Shown piece by piece: positions 852 through 16,250 of a DNA stretch of 24,543 nucleotides (its first letter is position 1; each line of letters begins with the position of its first letter). A model generated the notes under the pieces. It worked only from the letters and a program-made list of their open reading frames with translations, did no database searches and was not told the origin of the DNA. Location: positions 1 through 24,543 of IMG/VR virus record IMGVR_UViG_3300046804_001294. One strand, 5' to 3'. This DNA is from a virus. Both the position numbers and the translations under genes were made by a program.

Positions 852-2090
852 ATGAGCAACGCATTTCGGGGTCAAGCACAATACATGACGCCAATTTATT
901 CGCAGGCCCCGACGGGCGGCTTCAACATGTCTGGCTATGGTGGAGACACCATGCAAGACCTCGGAGACCTCGGAGACCTCAGCGGCCTCGCCAACTTTGG
1001 CGCCGTGAGCGGCCCCGCCTCGATGGGCGGCGGCTATAGCATGTTTGGGTCTTATAGCCCGACGCCGTACCAGCAACAGGATTACACCGGCGGATACATG
1101 CCGGGCTATGGCGCGCAACTGCCGCAGCAGTTTGGCGGCTATGGCGGCGGCTACGGTCGTGGATATGGCGGCTTTGCGAGCCAGTTTGGCGGCCGCTTTG
1201 GCGGCGGCTACGGCGGCGGGTTTGGTATGCCGCAGCCGCAGCAGCCGAACGTAAACGACCTATTTGGTCAGTATATGTTTGGCCAATATTATGGTCAGCC
1301 GGCCTTCAACCCGTTCCAGGCCACGTCCATGTTTGGCGGCGGCCGGCGTGGCGGGTTTGGCGGCGGCCGACGCGGCGGTCGCGAGCGTATGTTCCCAACT
1401 CAGCAACCAGAAGTTCAAGCATATGCCCCCCAGCCGCCGCGCATGACATGGTCTCCGCCTATGCCGGCGCAGCCGCCCGTAAGTCCGCCGGCCCCGGTTA
1501 CACCAGCGCCAGCGCCAGTGCCAAGCCAGCAAAACCAGAGCTCAAACCCAGACTATTGGTACACCAAGCTGGTCGAAAATAACCCAGGCATTGACACAGA
1601 CCGCGCAAGACAGCTCGCTGAAGAGCGCGCCGCAGTATTTCGCGGACAGGCTCAATCGCAACAGCAGACGACGCAACAGCCGCCGTCACAGCCACAGGCT
1701 CCAAACATTTACGATCCGTCAAACGATGACTGGGGCCGTGGTGAGGGTCAAATCAATGCCGCAGATTTGCCAAGCGGATTTAATTGGCAGGCGTATCTTG
1801 ATGCGCCGTCAAACGCCGATCTTCGCGCGGCAGGGCTTGATACGCCAAGCGAGGCGGCGCGTCATTATTTGAAATATGGTCGTAGTGAAGGAAGGAATTT
1901 AGGGGCGGCAGCGCCATCTGCGGCGCCATCAATAACGCAACCAGTCAATCAACCTGCGACACCATATTTCCCATCCGTGACGCAGCCAGTAGAGACCACG
2001 ATGCCGTACGATCTTGGCGACCTCAGTGGCCTCTCTAGACTCGGCGGCTTTGACCCATACGGCCGGTTTGGCGCGTTTAACTTTAGGTGA
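852..2090 (+). CDS. Gly/Tyr/Arg-rich low-complexity protein with a C-terminal YLxxxxDLxxAG/HYLxYGRxEGR motif
   Basis: A GGAGG ribosome site (838-842) sits nine bases before the ATG. Residues 1-50 are ordinary and include DLGDLSGL (39-46). Residues about 55-175 are low complexity, rich in Gly, Tyr, Phe and Gln, with YGGGYGRGYGGF-type tracts and two GGGRRGG (RGG-like) elements. Residues about 190-230 are Pro/Ala/Gln-rich. Residues about 310-349 form a compact motif, FNWQAYL..NADLRAAGL..EAARHYLKYGRSEGR. It resembles a short helical repeat found in various bacterial and phage surface proteins. DLGDLSGL recurs at 387-394, just before the C-terminus. The gene lies between portal and scaffold. It is probably a virion or assembly protein, but no function can be assigned. 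Confidence 0.7.
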   Translation: MSNAFRGQAQYMTPIYSQAPTGGFNMSGYGGDTMQDLGDLGDLSGLANFGAVSGPASMGGGYSMFGSYSPTPYQQQDYTGGYMPGYGAQLPQQFGGYGGGYGRGYGGFASQFGGRFGGGYGGGFGMPQPQQPNVNDLFGQYMFGQYYGQPAFNPFQATSMFGGGRRGGFGGGRRGGRERMFPTQQPEVQAYAPQPPRMTWSPPMPAQPPVSPPAPVTPAPAPVPSQQNQSSNPDYWYTKLVENNPGIDTDRARQLAEERAAVFRGQAQSQQQTTQQPPSQPQAPNIYDPSNDDWGRGEGQINAADLPSGFNWQAYLDAPSNADLRAAGLDTPSEAARHYLKYGRSEGRNLGAAAPSAAPSITQPVNQPATPYFPSVTQPVETTMPYDLGDLSGLSRLGGFDPYGRFGAFNFR

Positions 2091-6837: not shown

Positions 6838-7508
6838 GCAGGTCAATAGCGATATTGGTCCCTGCGCGTGATACGGTGATGACCTCGTTTGCGTACGACA
6901 TGGCGCGGGCGATGAGTTACCACACAGCGACGACAGACGACCGTGTTTTGCTCTTCACGAGCCACGGGACTCTAATCGCCTCTCAGCGGATGGAGCTTGC
7001 GCGTCAAGCACTCGAGGAGAAGGCGGACTATCTCCTCTGGCTTGACTCAGACATGCGGTTCCCGAAGGAAACGATCGGGCACCTCATCCTACGCGACAAG
7101 CCCATCGTGGCCGCGAATTACTCCACGCGCCGGATGCCGGTGAAGCCGGTGGCGATGATGGACGGCGGCGGGAAGATTGACCGGGTATATACCGGCCCAG
7201 AGTCCGAGGGCCTGCAAAGTGTCGACTACGTCGGCATGGGCGTGATGATGACGAAGCGCGAGGTGTTTGAAAAACTCGACGCGCCGTGGTTTGCGATCCC
7301 CTACTCAACGGTCGGGAATCACTACATCGGCGAAGACGTCTTCTTTTGCCGCAAGGCGAGAGAGGCCGGGTACGAGATAACGCTGGACCATGATCTCTCG
7401 CAGCACGTAAAACATATCGGCACCTTTGAGTATTCTCACGAGGGTGCCTGGGCGGTGAAGGAACAGGTGGACGGTGGCTCTAACATCATACACAGCGCTC
7501 AAGTCTAG
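6834..7508 (+). CDS. GT-A-type glycosyltransferase-like protein (224 aa)
   Basis: The start is set by an ATGA overlap. The N-terminus is a Rossmann-like strand (SIAILVPARDTVMTSFAYDM). DYLLWLDSDMRFP (65-77) contains the DxD metal and nucleotide-sugar motif at D71-D73. VGMGVMMTKREVFE (133-146) lies where GT-A enzymes have the acceptor-loop GG/G block. GED at 166-168 would supply the catalytic base. H191 and H194 (HVKH) are candidate metal ligands. Domain order and length fit small phage glycosyltransferases related to the GT2/Anp1 group. Lying between capsid and adaptor genes, it may glycosylate a virion protein, or modify host surface sugars; the substrate cannot be read from sequence. The last 35 bases overlap the adaptor gene. 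Confidence 0.75.
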   Translation: MSRSIAILVPARDTVMTSFAYDMARAMSYHTATTDDRVLLFTSHGTLIASQRMELARQALEEKADYLLWLDSDMRFPKETIGHLILRDKPIVAANYSTRRMPVKPVAMMDGGGKIDRVYTGPESEGLQSVDYVGMGVMMTKREVFEKLDAPWFAIPYSTVGNHYIGEDVFFCRKAREAGYEITLDHDLSQHVKHIGTFEYSHEGAWAVKEQVDGGSNIIHSAQV

Positions 7509-8106
7509 CGTCGCCGACTGGCTGAACCGCGACGACCTCACGTCGGTGATCCCCGACTTCATCTCGCTCGCAGAGGCGCAGATGGAGCGGAGGCTCCCGA
7601 CGCAAAAGATGGTCAAGCGCTCCACGGCGACGATCGACACGCCGTTCTCTGCGCTGCCGTCTGATTTTCTTTCGTGTAAGGCTTTGATCCTGACCAGCAC
7701 CTCCCCGGTGCAGCAGCTCGTGTTCTTGTCGGAGGACGAGGTAGACGCAAAAAAATACGTCTACAACGCCACCGGCAAGCCGAAGTATTTTTCGCTGATC
7801 GGGAACCAGATAGAGGTCATGCCCGCGCCTGACACCAGCTACACGGCCGAGCTCACCTACGTGGCGACGCTCGCGAAGCTCTCGGACAGTAACGCATCTA
7901 ACTGGGTCCTCGAGCGCCACCCCGACGTGTATCTCTACGGGTCGCTCCTACAGGCGGCGCCGTACCTGCGCGACGATGAGCGCATAGGGGTCTGGTCTGG
8001 TTTGTACCAGTCCGCGATGGAAGAGATGATGCTGCAAAACGAACGCGCCGCCTTTAGCCAAGGCCGCACCGCAATGACCGTCAAACCGACGAGGGTGATC
8101 CCGTGA
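7474..8106 (+). CDS. Head-tail adaptor (connector) protein (210 aa)
   Basis: The protein starts MALTSYTALKSSVADWLNRD, followed by VIPDFISLAEAQMERRL, the usual opening of adaptor proteins that dock on the portal ring (P22 gp4 or T7 gp11 role). This fixes the GTG 7474 start, which lies 35 bases inside the glycosyltransferase gene; AAGGA and AGGTGG stand just upstream. The middle is beta-rich (YFSLIGNQIEVMPAPDTSYT, ELTYVATLAKLSD), then a helical end contains HPDVYLYGSLLQAAPYLRDD. Length about 210 is normal for the family. It should form the ring joining portal and tail hub. It overlaps the next gene by GTGA. Confidence 0.82.
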   Translation: MALTSYTALKSSVADWLNRDDLTSVIPDFISLAEAQMERRLPTQKMVKRSTATIDTPFSALPSDFLSCKALILTSTSPVQQLVFLSEDEVDAKKYVYNATGKPKYFSLIGNQIEVMPAPDTSYTAELTYVATLAKLSDSNASNWVLERHPDVYLYGSLLQAAPYLRDDERIGVWSGLYQSAMEEMMLQNERAAFSQGRTAMTVKPTRVIP

Positions 8107-8486
8107 GTGCATTTTCTAATTACCTTGAGACCAAGATCCTCCAGCATGTGTTGACAAATACGTCTTACACGTCGCCGACGACGGTGTACTTGGGCCTGCA
8201 CACCGCAGACCCGACCGACGCCGGGACGGGGACGGAGGTGAGCGGCGGATCTTATGCGCGCCAGTCGTGCGCCTTTACGGTGACGGGAGACACGGGCAGC
8301 AACACGAGCGCCGTAGAGTTCCCGACCGCGACGGCGTCGTGGGGCACCGTCGGCTGGATCGCCGTCTGGGACAACGTCACGGGCGGGAACCTGTTATTTC
8401 ACGGCGCGCTGACCTCGAGCAAGACGATCGCCTCGGGCGACGTGTTTCGGGTCCCGGCGGGCGACCTTGATATTACGTTGAACTAA
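8103..8486 (+). CDS. Small conserved phage structural protein (127 aa)
   Basis: Initiation is at GTG 8103 within a GTGA overlap. The start MSAFSNYLETKILQHVL is a helix, followed by beta-rich blocks TVYLGLHTADPTDAGTGTEV, GGSYARQS, FPTATASWGTVGWIAVWD and GGNLLFHGALTSSKTIASGD, ending AAGDLDITLN-like (here PAGDLDITLN). This is a well-populated phage family, usually labelled tail-fibre or minor structural protein. A single compact beta domain after an N-terminal helix would fit a neck or fibre-attachment protein. The neighbours (adaptor before, repeat protein and fibre after) agree. The exact role is not established from the sequence. Confidence 0.75.
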   Translation: MSAFSNYLETKILQHVLTNTSYTSPTTVYLGLHTADPTDAGTGTEVSGGSYARQSCAFTVTGDTGSNTSAVEFPTATASWGTVGWIAVWDNVTGGNLLFHGALTSSKTIASGDVFRVPAGDLDITLN

Positions 8487-8489
8487 TCA

Positions 8490-9335
8490 ATGGCAGGCTA
8501 CGGCTCTGGTTTATATGGCCGTGGCAGGTATGGCATCGACCCTAAAGAGGGCGCTGCCACACTAAACGCGACCGCGGCCCTGTCCTGCATCGGCAGGCGG
8601 GTCCAGTTTGGGGCGGCGGCCCTAAACGGCGCCGCGACGGTGACGGCGGTCGGGGTAAGGGTAAGGCTCGCGGCGTCGGCGCTATCGGCGTCCGCGAGCC
8701 AGTCGGCGTCGGCGCTGATCGTCAAGGACGGCGCCGCAGCATTGAACGGCGCGGCGTCGGTGACGTGCGCCGCAAAGATCGTCAAAGACGGCGCCGCTGC
8801 GCTGTCTGGGGCGGCCACTCTGGCCTCGGCGGCGACCAGAGTACGGCTCGGGGACGCCGCGCTGAGTGCCAGCGCGTCGCTCTCTGCGGATTATCGCCGC
8901 GTCAGGCTCGCGAGCGCCGCGGTCTCTGCCGCCGCGAGCGTATCCGCCTCGGCGGTGCGCGTCGCAGACGGCGCGGCGGCCATGGCTGGGTCGGCCACGC
9001 AGACAGCGACCGCGAAGGTCATCTACCTAGACAGCGCCGCCTTAACCGGCGCCGCGACGGTGGTGGCCTCTTGGGTCCTGGTACAGAGCGCCGCCTGTGC
9101 GGTCTCTGCGGCGGCGACGATGGTGGCCTCCGGGCGCCTCAAGTGGCAGACGGAGCCCGACACGCCAGAGACGTGGACGGCGCAGGGGGACACGGCAGAG
9201 AGCTGGGCCACAGCGGGCGACACGGTCGTCGCGTGGACCCCGGCGAGTGACACGGCAGAGACATGGGCGCCGGCGAGTGACACGGCGAAGACTTGGACGC
9301 AGAAGACACACCCGGCCTATTTGCAGGCCGCTTGA
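8490..9335 (+). CDS. Tandem-repeat virion-type protein: ten 20-residue repeats then 10-residue Trp repeats (281 aa)
   Basis: Residues 1-20 are Gly/Tyr-rich (MAGYGSGLYGRGRYG). Residues 21-220 are ten consecutive 20-residue units with no insertion or deletion, consensus roughly GAAALSGAATVTASAxRVRL. Ala/Ser alternate with Val/Leu, and Arg/Val or Lys/Asp close each unit. Residues 219-269 switch to a 10-residue period, consensus (G/S)DTAETWxxA, with Trp at exactly 219, 229, 239, 249, 259 and 269. The tail THPAYLQAA ends the protein. Alternation of small and aliphatic residues suggests a beta-solenoid or fibrous shaft. It lies directly before the tail fibre, so a fibre extension or adaptor is plausible. 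I do not recognise a characterised homologue. No strong ribosome site precedes the ATG. Confidence 0.75.
   Translation: MAGYGSGLYGRGRYGIDPKEGAATLNATAALSCIGRRVQFGAAALNGAATVTAVGVRVRLAASALSASASQSASALIVKDGAAALNGAASVTCAAKIVKDGAAALSGAATLASAATRVRLGDAALSASASLSADYRRVRLASAAVSAAASVSASAVRVADGAAAMAGSATQTATAKVIYLDSAALTGAATVVASWVLVQSAACAVSAAATMVASGRLKWQTEPDTPETWTAQGDTAESWATAGDTVVAWTPASDTAETWAPASDTAKTWTQKTHPAYLQAA
8550..9149 (+). repeat. Ten in-frame 60-bp (20-codon) tandem repeats
   Basis: The repeats cover residues 21-220 of the 281-residue protein in perfect 60-base register. DNA copies are diverged but recognisable: the GACGGCGCCGC core recurs at 8728 and 8788, each after an ATCGTCAA(G/A) lead. Preserved spacing with diverged bases indicates an old repeat kept in register by selection on the protein. 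Confidence 0.85.
9144..9296 (+). repeat. 30-bp (10-codon) Trp-Asp repeats
   Basis: Six Trp codons occur exactly every 30 bases (9144, 9174, 9204, 9234, 9264, 9294) and five Asp codons at the same period. The unit is (G/S)DTAETWxxA, with GACACGGC(A/G) as the conserved DNA core. The period is half that of the preceding 20-residue array. Confidence 0.85.
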
Positions 9336-9346
9336 GGTAACTAGAC

Positions 9347-11500
9347 ATGGCTGATACGACAACCACCAACCTGGGCCTGACGAAGCCGGAGGTCGGCGCG
9401 TCCTCGGATACCTGGGGCGGGAAGCTCAACACCAACCTCGACACCATCGATGGGATCTTTGCGGGCGCCGGTAGCGGCACCTCGGTGGGACTAAACGTCG
9501 GCACCGGAAAGACCCTCACCGTGGGCGGCACGCAGAACATGTCTGCGCTGACGGCCTCGACCGCGCTGGCGCTCGACGCCAGCAAGAACGTCGTGAGCGT
9601 CACAAACACCGGCACCGGGAACAACGTGCTCTCTGCCTCCCCGACGTTTACCGGGACGATCAGCGGAGCCGCCGCGAGCCTCTCCGGCAACCTCACCTTC
9701 TCGTCCACCGCCCAGCGCATCACGGGCGATATGTCCAATGCGACATTTAGCAGTCGGTTGGCGTTTCAAAGCAGCACGACGAATGGCAATACAAACGTAA
9801 CCACGTTGCCAAATGGAACAAGCACATCGTCAGGAATTCAATGCTACAACGCAGCAGACCCAACAAATGCTGCGTTTGCGAACATAGGCGCAAGTTCAGC
9901 CGAAATTCAATTTCTTTCTGCTATTCGCGGCACCGGCACCTACCTGCCGATGACCTTCTATACCGGCGGCAGCGAGCGTATGCGGCTGGATACGTCGGGG
10001 AATCTCGGGATTGGTACTACGTCGCCGGGGGCAAAGTTACAAATTAACGGTTCCACGGCGCAATATTCACCAAGTGTTGCTGTTAGAACAGCGCCCAATC
10101 AATACGAATGGGGGCATCCCAATACTTCGGGCTATGGCTCGGTAATCGGCGCGGAATCAGGGTCAGGTGCGTCATTTATTGCATTCAATTCTGGCGCTGG
10201 GACAAACAGTAACACCTACCGCACATTTGGGATTCCCGGCAGCGTATTTAGAGCCGACAATGCCGGTGGTTTGGGGCTTTATCGCGTCACGACAGCATCA
10301 GCCGATAATCAATCGCTTACTGGGCCGACAGCCTTTTTTGACTCCTCCGGCAACGTCGGGATTGGTACTGCGTCGCCTTTGGCATGGCTCCAAGTGGGGG
10401 CAGGTACAAATGCCGTTGCGATGACCGGGACGCAACTCCTGTCAGTTAAAACAAGTGGCGCATCGGCTGGGGTAAGCGCAAAACGTGACGGATTTGCTGA
10501 AGTAGGAATGCAGTCTGGCGGCGGTGGCGGTTACGTCGGAACATGGACAAATGATGTTCTTAATATAGTCACCAACGGCACATCAAATGTTCGTATGGTC
10601 GTAGACACCTCCGGCAACGTCGGGATTGGCGGGACGGCACAGGCGTATTCTCGTCTTAATTTACTTGGAACATATCCAACATCCAGCAACGCGACTCAAG
10701 TTGTACGTTTAGACGGCACAATTCCAAGCGGCACAACGGCTAGTTATCGTAGTTTTTTGTCTCGCCCAGTAACGCAAGCAACAGCGTTTACTTTAACCAA
10801 TCTTATCCATTTTGAAGCAGACACTCAAACTTTGGGTGCAGGGTCAGCCGTAACCAATCAATATGGATTTTCTGTTGCAGATAGCCTCACCGGAGCCACC
10901 AACAACTACGGCTTCTACAGCAACATCGCCTCTGGCTCTAACCGCTGGAACTTCTATGCAGCGGGGACGGCGCAGAATTATTTTGCGGGTGATGTGGGTA
11001 TTGGCCGAACGCCCGTTTATCGTTTGCACGTTCAAGGTTCCACTACAACTAGCGCAAATTATGCACTGGTTGTAGAAAATGCAGGCGCAGCCGCAAATCT
11101 GTTTTACGTCAGAAACGACGGGCTGATGATGATTGGTAATGCCGCCAATTCTCCATATAGTTACACCACAGGCAATGCGGCAAATTTATATGTTGATGCG
11201 GGTGGATTGGTTTACAGATCAACGTCATCGCTTCGTTATAAGTCAGACGTAACTGACGCCACACACGGTCTTGCTGACGTACTTAAACTTCGCAGCGTTA
11301 CTTACAAGGCCAAGAACAGCGGCGACACCGTATTTGGCGGCTTGATTGCTGAAGAAGTGCATGACGCTGGGCTGACCGAGTTTGTGGCCTACGACAAAGA
11401 AGGCCGACCAGATGCTATCCATTACGGAAACATGGTGGCTTTGCTTGTGAAGGCTGTGCAAGAACTGACAGCGCGTGTCGCTGAACTGGAGGCTAAATAA
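9347..11500 (+). CDS. Tail fibre or spike protein with C-terminal S74 intramolecular chaperone (717 aa)
   Basis: GAGG at 9334-9337 precedes the ATG. Residues 1-35 (TTTNLGLTKPEVGASSDTWG, then NTNLDTIDGIF) are a common phage fibre attachment start. The middle is a Gly/Ser/Thr/Asn-rich beta fibre with four GNVGIG-type units near residues 218, 335, 423 and 548, each followed by an LxV strand. The last 91 residues are a peptidase S74 (endosialidase-type) chaperone: SSLRYKSDV at 627-635 gives catalytic Ser627 and Lys632, then LRSVTYKAKNSGD, FGGLIAEEVHDAG and a terminal coiled coil (LLVKAVQELTARVAELE). These domains trimerise the fibre and then cut themselves off before the Ser. The protein is probably the receptor-binding fibre. 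From about 9740 the DNA is clearly more AT-rich than the 5' end. Confidence 0.88.
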   Translation: MADTTTTNLGLTKPEVGASSDTWGGKLNTNLDTIDGIFAGAGSGTSVGLNVGTGKTLTVGGTQNMSALTASTALALDASKNVVSVTNTGTGNNVLSASPTFTGTISGAAASLSGNLTFSSTAQRITGDMSNATFSSRLAFQSSTTNGNTNVTTLPNGTSTSSGIQCYNAADPTNAAFANIGASSAEIQFLSAIRGTGTYLPMTFYTGGSERMRLDTSGNLGIGTTSPGAKLQINGSTAQYSPSVAVRTAPNQYEWGHPNTSGYGSVIGAESGSGASFIAFNSGAGTNSNTYRTFGIPGSVFRADNAGGLGLYRVTTASADNQSLTGPTAFFDSSGNVGIGTASPLAWLQVGAGTNAVAMTGTQLLSVKTSGASAGVSAKRDGFAEVGMQSGGGGGYVGTWTNDVLNIVTNGTSNVRMVVDTSGNVGIGGTAQAYSRLNLLGTYPTSSNATQVVRLDGTIPSGTTASYRSFLSRPVTQATAFTLTNLIHFEADTQTLGAGSAVTNQYGFSVADSLTGATNNYGFYSNIASGSNRWNFYAAGTAQNYFAGDVGIGRTPVYRLHVQGSTTTSANYALVVENAGAAANLFYVRNDGLMMIGNAANSPYSYTTGNAANLYVDAGGLVYRSTSSLRYKSDVTDATHGLADVLKLRSVTYKAKNSGDTVFGGLIAEEVHDAGLTEFVAYDKEGRPDAIHYGNMVALLVKAVQELTARVAELEAK
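10344..10629 (+). repeat. Direct repeat: identical 22-bp copies in the fibre gene (10344-10365 and 10608-10629)
   Basis: Two exact copies 264 bases (88 codons) apart encode SGNVGIG. Related, diverged copies are near 9996 and 10985. They mark a repeated structural unit of the fibre and are a possible site of recombination between fibre genes. Confidence 0.8.
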
Positions 11501-13933: not shown

Positions 13934-14301
13934 GCGACGTTGAGGGCATAGAATACGTCGCACCCTTCCGCGAGCTCATAGAGCGTGCGCTGGCGGAAGG
14001 GTACGGGCAACTGAACTATGACGACATCGTCCAGGGGATCAACCGCGGCGAGTACCAGTTTTGGACCGCCAGCAACTCCTGCGTCATCACGACGATAGAC
14101 ATCTTTCCGCGCCTGAAGCAGCTCACGATCATCATCGGCGCCGGGGACTTGGAAGAGATCGACGCGGTCATCAGGCCGGTGATCGAGACCTGGGCCAAGT
14201 CCATCGGCTGCGAGGCGCTGATTATCTTTGGCCGCCCCGGATGGCAGAGGGCGCTTGAGGGCTACAAACGCACCGCGGTGGTGCTGGAAAAAAGACTATG
14301 A
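13930..14301 (+). CDS. GNAT-like phage protein (123 aa)
   Basis: The start is set by an ATGA overlap. The pattern of helix, YDDIVQGINRGEYQFWTASN, strand CVITTIDIFPRLKQLTIIIG, then AGDLEEIDAVIRPVIETWAK and CEALIIFGRPGWQRALEGYK is the shape of the small GNAT-fold proteins in podovirus genomes, often likened to T7 gp13. In T7 that protein is needed for virion morphogenesis. The acetyl-CoA-binding (Q/R)xxGx(G/A) loop is not obvious, so it may be a structural use of the fold. It lies between the tail hub and the large internal protein and overlaps both, which fits an assembly role. Confidence 0.72.
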   Translation: MSDVEGIEYVAPFRELIERALAEGYGQLNYDDIVQGINRGEYQFWTASNSCVITTIDIFPRLKQLTIIIGAGDLEEIDAVIRPVIETWAKSIGCEALIIFGRPGWQRALEGYKRTAVVLEKRL

Positions 14302-16250
14302 GTAACCTGTTTAAGTCCAAGAAGACCGAGACCCAGAAGACGGAGATAGACCCGGCGGTCTATCAAAACGTCCTCGCAAACATTGAGTTGGCAAACCAGC
14401 TGGCCTCGGTGCCGTTTACGCCCTACCAGGGGCTCCTCACGGCGCCCTTCACGCAGGACTATATGCGTGGCGAGGCGATGACGCGCGCCATCGCCGGCGA
14501 GGGCGGCTTCGTCCCAGAGCTGGAGCTGGCCTCGCGGCAGGTACAGCGCGACCTTGGGTTCCAACCAGAGCGCGTCTTTGCGCCGGGGACGCGGCAGCGG
14601 TTCCGCGCGCCGACCGCGCAGGCCGCCACCGTGACGCCGGGGACCGCGGTCGACACGGTGAGCGCGGGCCAGGTCGCGACGCAGTTCGCGCCGGGCGTGA
14701 CCACGGCGGGCCGCGTCGCGACGCAGTTCGCGGCCCCGGCGGTGGGCGCGGGCCAGGTCGGTACGCGCTTCGCGGCGCGTGACGTAGGCGCACCAGGCGC
14801 CGCCCCCATGGCGCAGGGCGCCTCTGTCTTGGGCGAGGACCTCGCGCGCTACCAGAGCCCGTACCAGCAGGCCGTGATCGAGGCCGGGCTCTCTGACATC
14901 TCCCGCGCCGAGGAGCAGGCCCGCGCCGGTCGCGCTGCCCGTGCCACGGCGGCGCGTGCCTTTGGTGGCTCGCGTGCGGCGATTGAGGAAGGGATCGCCG
15001 CGGGAGAGGCGGCGCGTGAGCGCAACCGCTTCGTGGCCGAGCAGCGCGCGCGTGGCTTCCAAGAGGCCGCGGCGATGCGCGAGGCGGACGTGGGGCGCCA
15101 GCAGCAGGCGGCGCTCGCGAACCAGCAGGCGGCTCAAAACGTGATGCAGCTCGCGCAGGCGGGCCAGATCAGCAACCAAGAGCGCGACATCCGGCTCCAG
15201 CAGCTCGGGCTCACGGCGGAGCAGGCGAACGTAGAGGCGCAGATGCGCGCCGCGCTCGCGAACCAGCAGGCCGTGCAAGAGGCCCAGCGCCTCGGCGTCA
15301 CGGCAGAGACCACCAACGTGCAGGCGGCGCTCGAGGCCGAGCGCGCGAACCAGCAGGCCCGCCAAGAGGCGGCGCGGCTGGGCCTCACGGCCGAGCAGGC
15401 GAACCAGCAGGCGATGCTCGAGGCCGCTCGCTTGAACCAAGCGGCGCGTCTCCAGGGCCAGCAGATGACGCAGGGGCAGCAGGAGTTCAACGCGCGCCAG
15501 ATCCAGCAGATTGAGCTCGCCAACCAACAGGCGCGGCAGCGTGCGCAAGAGATGGGCATGACCGCCGAGCAGTTCAACGCGGAGCAGGCCATGCGCGCGG
15601 CGCTCGCCAACCAGGCAGCCGGCGGAGAGGCCGCGCGGTTCCGTCTTGGCGCCGCGACGCAGCTCGGCGACTTTGGGCGGCAGGCGCTCCAGAACCGCTA
15701 CGGCGCCGCGGCGGCGATGACGGGCCTCGGGACGGGGCAGCAGAACTTGATGCAGCAGTACCTTGACCGGCAGTACCAGGAGTTCGCGCGCCAGCAGAAC
15801 TATCCGCTCCAGCAGCTCGCGATCCGGCAGGGCGCGATCGCGGCGAGCCCGTACAACGTGACCCAGACCGGGACCGTGACGAGCCGCCCGAGTTACTGGC
15901 AGATGATGGGACAGATCGGGAGCACGATCGCAGGGTTCTCCGACGAGACCATGAAAAAGAACGTCTCTAAGATCAAGAACCCGCTCGACAAGGTGAACCG
16001 ACTGAAGGGGATCGAGTTTGAGTGGGAAGACGAATACAAGGGAGACGTAGAAGAGAACGGCCAGGAGCCAGAGGGCAAGAGCATGAGCGTCTCCGCGCAG
16101 GACGTGGAGGACGAGATGCCAGAGGCCGTGCAATACGCCGACAACGGCAAGATGATGGTCGACTTCCCGAAGGTGGTCGGGCTCTTGACGGAGGCCGTCA
16201 AAGAACTCGACGCCAAGGTGGAAGGCAAGAAGCGCAAGGGGAAGAAATAA
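14298..16250 (+). CDS. Ala/Gln-rich helical-repeat virion protein with C-terminal S74-like domain (650 aa)
   Basis: The start is in an ATGA overlap. Residues 1-60 contain a basic start and a PFTPYQGLLTAPFTQDYMRG block. Residues 123-159 hold three AGxVxTxFA units 14 residues apart. YQSPYQQAVIEAGLSDISRA and AARAFGGSRAAIE (185-230) match a family in marine and freshwater podoviruses. Residues 303-447 are five indel-free 29-residue helical repeats, consensus LGLTAEQANxQAxLEAARANQQARQEAAR. At 547-553 FSDETMK, with KNVSKIKNPLDKVNRLKG, then FEWEDE, VSAQDVEDEMPEAV and the terminal helix VVGLLTEAVKELDAKV, resembles an S74 chaperone (Ser548, Lys553). The protein could be an ejection protein or a trimeric whisker or fibre; S74 favours a trimeric fibrous assembly. 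Confidence 0.75.
   Translation: MSNLFKSKKTETQKTEIDPAVYQNVLANIELANQLASVPFTPYQGLLTAPFTQDYMRGEAMTRAIAGEGGFVPELELASRQVQRDLGFQPERVFAPGTRQRFRAPTAQAATVTPGTAVDTVSAGQVATQFAPGVTTAGRVATQFAAPAVGAGQVGTRFAARDVGAPGAAPMAQGASVLGEDLARYQSPYQQAVIEAGLSDISRAEEQARAGRAARATAARAFGGSRAAIEEGIAAGEAARERNRFVAEQRARGFQEAAAMREADVGRQQQAALANQQAAQNVMQLAQAGQISNQERDIRLQQLGLTAEQANVEAQMRAALANQQAVQEAQRLGVTAETTNVQAALEAERANQQARQEAARLGLTAEQANQQAMLEAARLNQAARLQGQQMTQGQQEFNARQIQQIELANQQARQRAQEMGMTAEQFNAEQAMRAALANQAAGGEAARFRLGAATQLGDFGRQALQNRYGAAAAMTGLGTGQQNLMQQYLDRQYQEFARQQNYPLQQLAIRQGAIAASPYNVTQTGTVTSRPSYWQMMGQIGSTIAGFSDETMKKNVSKIKNPLDKVNRLKGIEFEWEDEYKGDVEENGQEPEGKSMSVSAQDVEDEMPEAVQYADNGKMMVDFPKVVGLLTEAVKELDAKVEGKKRKGKK
14664..14774 (+). 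repeat. Three 42-bp-period repeats encoding AGxVxTxFA
   Basis: Units start at 14664, 14706 and 14748 (residues 123, 137 and 151 of the 650-residue protein), each nine codons conserved plus five variable ones. The first two share GTCGCGACGCAGTTCGCG; the third is diverged. They lie in an Ala/Val/Thr-rich, probably extended segment. Confidence 0.8.
15204..15638 (+). repeat. Five 87-bp (29-codon) tandem repeats
   Basis: Units cover residues 303-331, 332-360, 361-389, 390-418 and 419-447 with no indel. Four begin with (L/M)G(L/V/M)TAE; the fourth unit (MTQGQQ) is diverged but in register. ANQQA or a variant occupies positions 19-23 of every unit. Twenty-nine residues is 11+11+7, a helical repeat compatible with a nearly straight coiled bundle. 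A degenerate sixth unit may precede at residues 256-284. Confidence 0.85.

What the first reader, a model, noticed from the sequence alone, without database searches (positions are those of the whole stretch)
8550..9305. Indel-free 20-residue repeat protein that switches to an exact 10-residue tryptophan repeat
Ten 20-residue units stand in perfect register (residues 21-220), then six Trp residues exactly ten apart (219-269) with a DTAETW motif. The period halves at the junction, and the last Trp-bearing residue of the first array (W219) is already in phase with the second. The DNA copies are diverged while spacing is strictly kept, so selection acts on geometry. The gene precedes the tail fibre. 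This could be a beta-solenoid shaft or a molecular ruler for fibre length. I know no characterised protein of this build.
Basis: partly seen in the sequence, partly recalled or inferred. Interest (0 to 1): 0.7.

Follow-up and report, generated by a model that had tools for sequence, protein, structure and literature searches.

The report
Threading repeat protein beside phage fibre beads
A phage gene encodes a chain of exactly 20-residue units and sits next to the gene for a known fibre-bead protein, and many other phages have dissimilar proteins with the same 20-residue pitch in that place, so it is probably the string that holds and counts the beads of a fibre.

Summary
ORF 8490-9335 (+, 281 aa) has ten indel-free 20-residue units (residues 21-220), then six Trp exactly ten apart (219-269). 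Whole-unit variation holds: 57 of 58 distinct relatives could be read, with 2, 6, 7 or 10 units and Trp steps always 10.

The gene upstream (8103-8486) is the bead protein of podophage GP4 fibre I (Pfam Gp80, E 6.8e-50; PDB 8jou). Among 112 clusters of proteins encoded just downstream of gp80-like genes, 54 show a 20-residue period (z>=3), against 2 of 58 upstream-gene clusters. They share an N-terminal [aromatic/aliphatic][G/N]-x3 triplet (27 of 54) and a 10-residue Trp array. In three actinobacteriophages the periodic gene lies on the other side of gp80.

Best explanation: an extended strand that strings gp80 beads, so unit number sets fibre length. It fits the 'rope' I recall from the GP4 abstract (paper not held). 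Threading is inferred. AlphaFold2 suggests a confident beta-solenoid, but AF2 gave solenoids for 36 of 50 random 10x20-residue repeats in a published test. Mass-spectrometry evidence is mixed, and 58 of 112 clusters lack the period.

The parts
8103..8486 (+). gp80-like fibre-bead protein, 127 aa (GTG start), the presumed partner
   Evidence: Pfam PF23140 'Podophage GP4 fiber I protein gp80' E 6.8e-50; PDB 8jou_a E 1.1e-11; AF2 model of the fused reading hits 8jou_a, E 8.3e-5, TM 0.76 of target. PHROGs names the family phrog_240 'head protein'
8490..9335 (+). repeat protein, 281 aa, 3 nt after the gp80 stop codon
   Evidence: ORF; gp80 ORF present in 81 of 81 loci L001-L081, L001 being the window; gap 2-5 nt in the 79 of 81 where it was measured
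8490..8549 (+). N-terminal cap, residues 1-20, YG-x3-YG-x3-YG triplet (MAGYGSGLYGRGRYGIDPKE)
   Evidence: most conserved stretch of the family; motif in 27 of 54 period-20 clusters versus 1 of 58 others
8550..9149 (+). ten 20-residue units, residues 21-220
   Evidence: lag-20 z 12.5, coherent to lag 100
9144..9332 (+). 10-residue Trp array (W219 to W269) and C-terminal tail KTHPAYLQAA
   Evidence: spacing 10 throughout; 74 of 85 Trp-Trp spacings are 10 in the C-termini of the period-20 clusters
7474..8106 (+). tail adaptor / virion structural protein upstream of gp80
   Evidence: phrog_2941 E 1.1e-49; an adaptor-like ORF in the locus marks the context in which 38 of 47 clusters are periodic
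9347..11500 (+). downstream tail-fibre protein, 717 aa
   Evidence: PHROG tail-fibre families at its C-terminus, best E 8.8e-13; no Pfam match up to E 1

Best explanation
The protein is the string of a bead-on-string fibre attached near the neck. Its capped N-terminus anchors one end; each 20-residue unit, run out as beta-strand and turn, docks onto one gp80-like Ig-type bead (protomer or dimer), so beads are spaced exactly 20 residues apart and their number, hence fibre length, is fixed by the unit count. The 10-residue Trp array is a second binding track at the other end, perhaps for the adhesin or tail fibre encoded next. Shown: repeat geometry, whole-unit variation, adjacency to gp80, and the recurrence of the 20-residue period, N-cap and Trp array in dissimilar proteins beside gp80. 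Inferred: physical threading, the unit-to-bead ratio, and which end anchors where.
For: gp80-like gene directly upstream: Pfam 'GP4 fiber I protein gp80', PDB 8jou 'Fiber I and fiber-tail-adaptor of phage GP4'. Among 112 clusters (40% identity) of the protein next downstream of gp80, lag-20 z>=3 in 54, best lag 20 in 44; mean z 3.58 at lag 20, 0.02 at 19, 0.38 at 21. Upstream-gene clusters 2 of 58, gp80 itself 0 of 15; other neighbours 7 of 106, 6 of 113, 3 of 100. With an adaptor-like ORF in the locus 38 of 47, without it 16 of 62. N-cap triplet 27 of 54 versus 1 of 58; Trp spacing 10 in 74 of 85. Whirlwind, Gmala1 and prophi62-1 have a periodic protein on the other side of gp80 (z20 7.7, 3.6, 4.9). 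GP4-type loci (gp80 98-100% identical to 8jou_a): the next gene, 325 aa, has about 11 units by eye (z20 5.9 over residues 17-240), against 10 gp80 chains in 8jou. Threading precedent: in Sf14 one gp30 chain threads through two whiskers (PMC11821841, passages); its neighbour gp31 (9c39_K) has the gp80 fold. BcepIL02 gp55 and gp56 are both annotated virion-associated; gp56 has z20 7.6.
Against: No structure shows the contact. The 'rope' of GP4 fibre I is recalled from an abstract; the paper is not held, and no PDB chain matches the GP4-type counterpart, so rope and repeat gene are not tied by any tool result. AF2 gives the units a regular, solenoid-like strand pattern (pLDDT above 90 in mid-array), and the same pattern again in the fused reading, where contacts could not be examined. 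JC1 virion MS reports gp53 (gp80-like) but not gp54, the gene after it (PMC9144972); phiM5 gp18 lacks the 'detected in phage particle proteome' note of gp16, gp17 and gp19. 58 of 112 clusters show no 20-residue period next downstream of gp80; 17 of these have such an ORF elsewhere in the locus. Of the three reversed cases, Gmala1's best lag is 14 (z 4.6) and prophi62-1's is 40. Sf14 gp30, the threading precedent, has no 20-residue period (z20 0.6). Odd unit numbers (7) do not fit two units per dimer.
Confidence: 0.6

Rival explanations
1. A free-standing beta-solenoid rod (20 residues per coil; 10-residue half-coils in the Trp part) that carries or spaces the tail fibre, with gp80 only at its base.
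For: AF2 model: per 20 residues a 3-residue and an 11-residue strand, the latter split in some units; block means of pLDDT up to 97 in mid-array, pTM 0.69, 121 of 281 residues at 90 or more. 'Solenoid' is my reading of this pattern and of the weak, non-significant Foldseek hits, several of them to beta-helix proteins; coordinates were not seen. A 20-to-10 change fits coil and half-coil.
Against: AF2 made solenoids of 36 of 50 random 20-residue units repeated ten times (PMC11795689, section read). No PDB fold match at E<=0.001. Does not explain why the period tracks gp80 across dissimilar proteins. Residues 1-16 and 233-275 are below pLDDT 50.
Confidence: 0.18
2. A trimeric beta-fibre shaft that joins the tail body to the fibre encoded next, length set by repeats, independent of gp80.
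For: Gene precedes a tail-fibre gene; beta-prone alternating repeats; whole-unit variation.
Against: Trimers could not be modelled here. The constant neighbour is gp80 (81 of 81 loci), and the 20-residue period recurs in clusters with dissimilar units.
Confidence: 0.12
3. A non-virion assembly factor (length-measuring scaffold or chaperone for gp80 fibres) that leaves before maturity.
For: Counterpart not reported by virion MS in JC1 and not flagged in phiM5.
Against: BcepIL02 gp56 and BcepMigl gp57 are annotated virion associated; the JC1 paper implies MS for Bcep22 and BcepIL02 but not BcepMigl. Ala/Ser-rich peptides may be poor MS targets (inference).
Confidence: 0.07

Closest known systems
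Fibre I of Ralstonia podophage GP4 (PDB 8jou; Zheng et al. 2023, not held; 'five gp80 dimers linked by an elongated rope protein' is recalled from the abstract)
   Same: gp80-like bead gene next door; loci with 98-100% the same gp80 carry a 20-residue-period protein right after it; about 11 units by eye against 10 gp80 chains in 8jou
   Different: Rope identity not confirmed by any search; the GP4-type protein shares the period, a partial N-cap and the locus with this one, and has spacings of 19 and 22 among its 20s by eye
Sf14 neck whiskers gp30/gp31 (PDB 9c39; PMC11821841, passages read)
   Same: gp31 has the gp80 fold; the adjacent gene's product threads through the whiskers
   Different: gp30 (166 aa) has no 20-residue period (z20 0.6) and no N-cap triplet by eye
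A-1(L) bead-chain neck fibre gp82-gp81-gp80 (PMC10966104, passages read)
   Same: Five bead-chain fibres anchored on a pentadecameric neck protein
   Different: Modelled beads are trimers joined head to tail without a string; its gp80 shares only a number with GP4 gp80; sequences not compared here
phrog_19041 'virion structural protein' (BcepMigl and GP4-type loci)
   Same: Same locus position, 20-residue period
   Different: No match to the window protein up to E 1

Membership tests
GP4 fibre I string ('rope') class, as defined here | gene directly beside a gp80-like bead gene | tested here: met
   PF23140 E 6.8e-50, 3 nt gap; gp80 ORF in 81 of 81 loci, gap 2-5 nt in 79 of 79 measured
GP4 fibre I string ('rope') class, as defined here | 20-residue period | tested here: met
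   z 12.5 for the array, 15.4 for the whole protein
GP4 fibre I string ('rope') class, as defined here | N-terminal [Y/F/L..][G/N]-x3 triplet | tested here: met
   MAGYGSGLYGRGRYG; the family representatives carry it
GP4 fibre I string ('rope') class, as defined here | sequence match to a deposited rope chain | not testable with these tools
   no PDB chain matches this protein or the GP4-type counterpart up to E 10; chains of unknown residues are not in that set
GP4 fibre I string ('rope') class, as defined here | binds and threads gp80 dimers | not testable with these tools
   needs complex modelling or experiment
GP4 fibre I string ('rope') class, as defined here | unit number equals bead number | tested here: inconclusive
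   about 11 units by eye versus 10 gp80 chains in one system
beta-solenoid rods | solenoid fold | tested here: inconclusive
   AF2 strand pattern suggests it, but AF2 is biased on exactly this repeat geometry; no PDB match at E<=0.001
known families in Pfam and PHROGs | profile match of the repeat protein | tested here: not met
   Pfam best E 0.49, below cut-off; PHROGs none up to E 1

The most novel reading that the evidence does not exclude
A widespread, unnamed class of phage proteins, dissimilar in sequence but sharing an exact 20-residue pitch, N-cap triplet and 10-residue aromatic tail, strings gp80-type beads into neck or tail fibres in podophages and actinobacteriophages; the gene's unit count is a genetically encoded ruler for bead number and fibre length, and it names the rope of GP4 fibre I.
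Probability: 0.4. Interest if true: 0.75.

Novelty: new variant of a known kind. Interest (0 to 1): 0.62.

Why it matters
If right, a feature readable from sequence (20-residue pitch beside gp80) identifies the string of bead-chain fibres in many unannotated phages and predicts fibre length from unit number. Natural variants with 2 to 10 units make that a direct test. It would also be a length-control principle different from the tail tape measure: one short motif per bead.

Tried and rejected
Profile searches of the repeat protein in Pfam, PHROGs and PDB sequences gave nothing. tblastn in phage records gave two weak hits, on the Trp array only. Foldseek of the repeat model: no PDB hit at E<=0.001; one BFVD hit at that level, E 4.3e-5, an uncharacterised Caudovirales protein. 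A natural gp80-repeat fusion was looked for among the 19 gp80 ORFs over 190 aa; two had z20 3.6 (L237, L240), but their N-termini look like over-extended ORF starts and neither is convincing. A general 10-residue half-unit inside the 20-residue arrays was tested and is not general: mean z at lag 10 is 0.19 over 52 trimmed arrays (2 of 54 too short), with z>=2 in 11 of 52; the GP4-type protein does have it (z 4.9). Searches of the open-access library for a described string or 20-residue repeat protein listed none that I recognised as such; the GP4 fibre paper is not held, so I cannot say whether it named the gene. Clusters at 40% identity are not independent lineages, so the Fisher values are nominal. 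My notebook entry giving L056 and L060 eight units was a miscount; they have seven.

Full report
What is there. ORF 8490-9335 (+) encodes 281 residues: a 20-residue cap MAGYGSGLYGRGRYGIDPKE, ten 20-residue units (21-220), a Trp array with W at 219, 229, 239, 249, 259 and 269, and a tail KTHPAYLQAA. The array is periodic at 20 with z 12.5 and stays in phase to lag 100. At DNA level the units average 51% identity, lowest at codon position 3, and Tandem Repeats Finder reports nothing. The period is therefore kept in the protein, not by recent DNA duplication (inference).

Relatives. A scan of IMG/VR gave 93 relatives, of which the best 80 were kept; they hold 58 distinct ORFs, one of them identical to the window's. 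Fifty-five were parsed automatically: 2, 6, 7 or 10 units and 3, 4 or 6 Trp, every Trp step exactly 10, no exception. One of these, L034, is cut by the contig end, so its count of 3 Trp is not real; four others do have 3. L056 and L060 use a GTG start and have 7 units and 6 Trp. L069 is cut by the contig end and was not counted. In an alignment of 34 of them the gaps in the 20-residue array are whole units, and those in the Trp array are mostly 20 residues.

Neighbourhood. The gene starts 3 nt after an ORF (8103-8486) that matches Pfam Gp80, 'Podophage GP4 fiber I protein gp80', at E 6.8e-50, and PDB chain 8jou_a at E 1.1e-11; that sequence has 10 chains in the entry. PHROGs calls the family 'head protein'. 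A model of the two genes read as one chain finds 8jou_a, titled 'Fiber I and fiber-tail-adaptor of phage GP4', with TM-score 0.76 of the target. [quoted passage not shown] that chain g is gp80 is my inference. From memory only, the GP4 abstract says each fibre I is five gp80 dimers linked by an elongated rope protein; the paper is not held.

Test across phages. An HMM found a gp80 ORF in 283 loci, L001-L283, including 81 of 81 in the first set (L001 is the window); there the gap to the repeat gene is 2-5 nt in the 79 loci where it was measured. In 15 loci there was no downstream ORF and 3 proteins were under 80 aa; the other 265 downstream proteins gave 112 clusters at 40% identity. Lag-20 z is at least 3 in 54 and the best lag is 20 in 44. 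Mean z is 3.58 at lag 20 and 2.53 at 40, but 0.02 at 19 and 0.38 at 21. Controls: gene upstream 2 of 58, gp80 itself 0 of 15; second and third genes downstream 7 of 106 and 6 of 113; second gene upstream 3 of 100. Where an adaptor-like ORF is in the locus, 38 of 47 clusters are periodic; where upstream DNA is held without one, 16 of 62; 3 clusters lacked upstream DNA. The gap from gp80 to the periodic gene is 30 nt or less in 49 of 54 clusters. The units printed for 17 examples look very different from one another, so the common element is the pitch.

Other shared features. An N-terminal triplet [YFWLIVM][GN]-x3-[YFWLIVM][GN]-x3-[YFWLIVM][GN] lies in the first 30 residues of 27 of 54 period-20 clusters, 1 of 58 other downstream clusters, 0 of 58 upstream clusters, none of 217, 181 and 236 control proteins, and in 0.3% of shuffles. 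In 34 of 54 clusters there are two or more Trp in the last 70 residues, and 74 of 85 spacings are 10; in the 27 non-periodic clusters with two or more Trp the spacing of 10 occurs three times and 8 is the commonest. The 20-to-10 change is thus a trait of much of the class. A 10-residue half-unit inside the 20-residue part is not general.

Counter-cases. 58 of 112 clusters show no period next downstream; 17 of them have a period-20 ORF elsewhere within the locus. Venkman, ctXG6705 and DB2 virus carry other genes there; DB2 has a 22-residue repeat protein with a Trp array three genes on. In the actinobacteriophages Whirlwind, Gmala1 and prophi62-1 (siphophages, recalled) the periodic protein is the gene before gp80 (z20 7.7, 3.6, 4.9), though Gmala1's best lag is 14 and prophi62-1's is 40; the genes after gp80 in Whirlwind and Gmala1 are not periodic (z20 0.0, 1.0). 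Lietuvens and Mvi-JY20 show none in the gene tested (1.5, 0.9) and Itty13 is marginal at 2.7.

GP4-type loci. With the 8jou gp80 as query, IMG/VR gave five loci with gp80 98-100% identical. The next gene encodes 325 residues, starting MRYALNVAPINGW in L284. Over residues 17-240 it shows lag-20 z 5.9 and lag-10 z 4.9; over the whole protein lags 10 and 20 are equal at 5.0. By eye it has about 11 units spaced 20, 20, 19, 20, 20, 20, 20, 22, 22, 20 (sequence), so register is not perfect there. It matches phrog_19041 'virion structural protein' and no PDB chain up to E 10; neither does the gene after it at E 0.001.

Precedent for threading. [quoted passage not shown] Sf14 gp31 is chain 9c39_K, which the fused model also matches (TM 0.71 of target); gp30 is encoded directly before it. 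gp30 itself has no 20-residue period.

Structure prediction. The repeat protein alone (34-row alignment) gives pLDDT 76, pTM 0.69; mid-array blocks reach 90-97 with a 3-residue and an 11-residue strand per unit, the longer one split in places, while residues 1-16 and 233-275 are below 50. The fused reading gives pLDDT 68, pTM 0.51 and the same strand pattern. Coordinates were not seen; 'solenoid' is my reading. I give it little weight: in PMC11795689 (abstract and section 3.1 read) AF2 turned 36 of 50 random 20-residue units repeated ten times into solenoids. A solenoid of ten coils would also be about 5 nm long (4.8 A per coil, general knowledge), too short to string several beads.

Virion evidence. 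BcepIL02 gp56 (z20 7.6) and BcepMigl gp57, in the same position, are annotated virion associated; the JC1 paper credits MS to Bcep22 and BcepIL02 but says it is still wanted for BcepMigl. In JC1 itself, MS reports gp53 (gp80-like) but not gp54, the next gene (PMC9144972, passages; its period was not tested). phiM5 gp18 lacks the proteome note.

Conclusion. The most likely mechanism is a strand that strings beads at a 20-residue pitch. Adjacency, pitch, cap and tail are shown; binding, stoichiometry and orientation are inferred.

Noticed in passing
window 14298-16250 (+): 650-aa protein with a C-terminal Peptidase_S74 chaperone domain (Pfam E 2e-10) that also matches a DNA-ejection PHROG (phrog_4287, E 5e-11) and several tail/baseplate PHROGs: a self-chaperoned ejection-like protein would be unusual.
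   Followed up: no
window 852-2090 (+): 412-aa Gly/Tyr/Gln/Pro-rich low-complexity protein, no Pfam match up to E 1.
   Followed up: no
L061 3580-3948: Natural variant with only two 20-residue units but the full six-Trp array; by eye its last unit resembles that of L057, as if inner units were lost by recombination.
   Followed up: partly
L082 6648-8174 (DB2 virus gp11, annotated 'ribonuclease E'): Best period is 22 residues (z 12.2) rather than 20, ending in a similar 10-residue Trp array; the annotation looks wrong.
   Followed up: partly
L297 1762-2958, L302 1819-2973, L298 1930-2967: Mycobacterium and Gordonia phage genes (annotated minor tail protein or hypothetical) just before a gp80-like gene carry a 20-residue period.
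   Followed up: partly
L129 4396-5877 and L148 1138-2568: About 20 regular units in one protein, by eye, predicting much longer fibres if units count beads.
   Followed up: no
L084 5432-6076: An annotated HNH endonuclease gene lies directly after gp80, where the repeat gene is expected.
   Followed up: no
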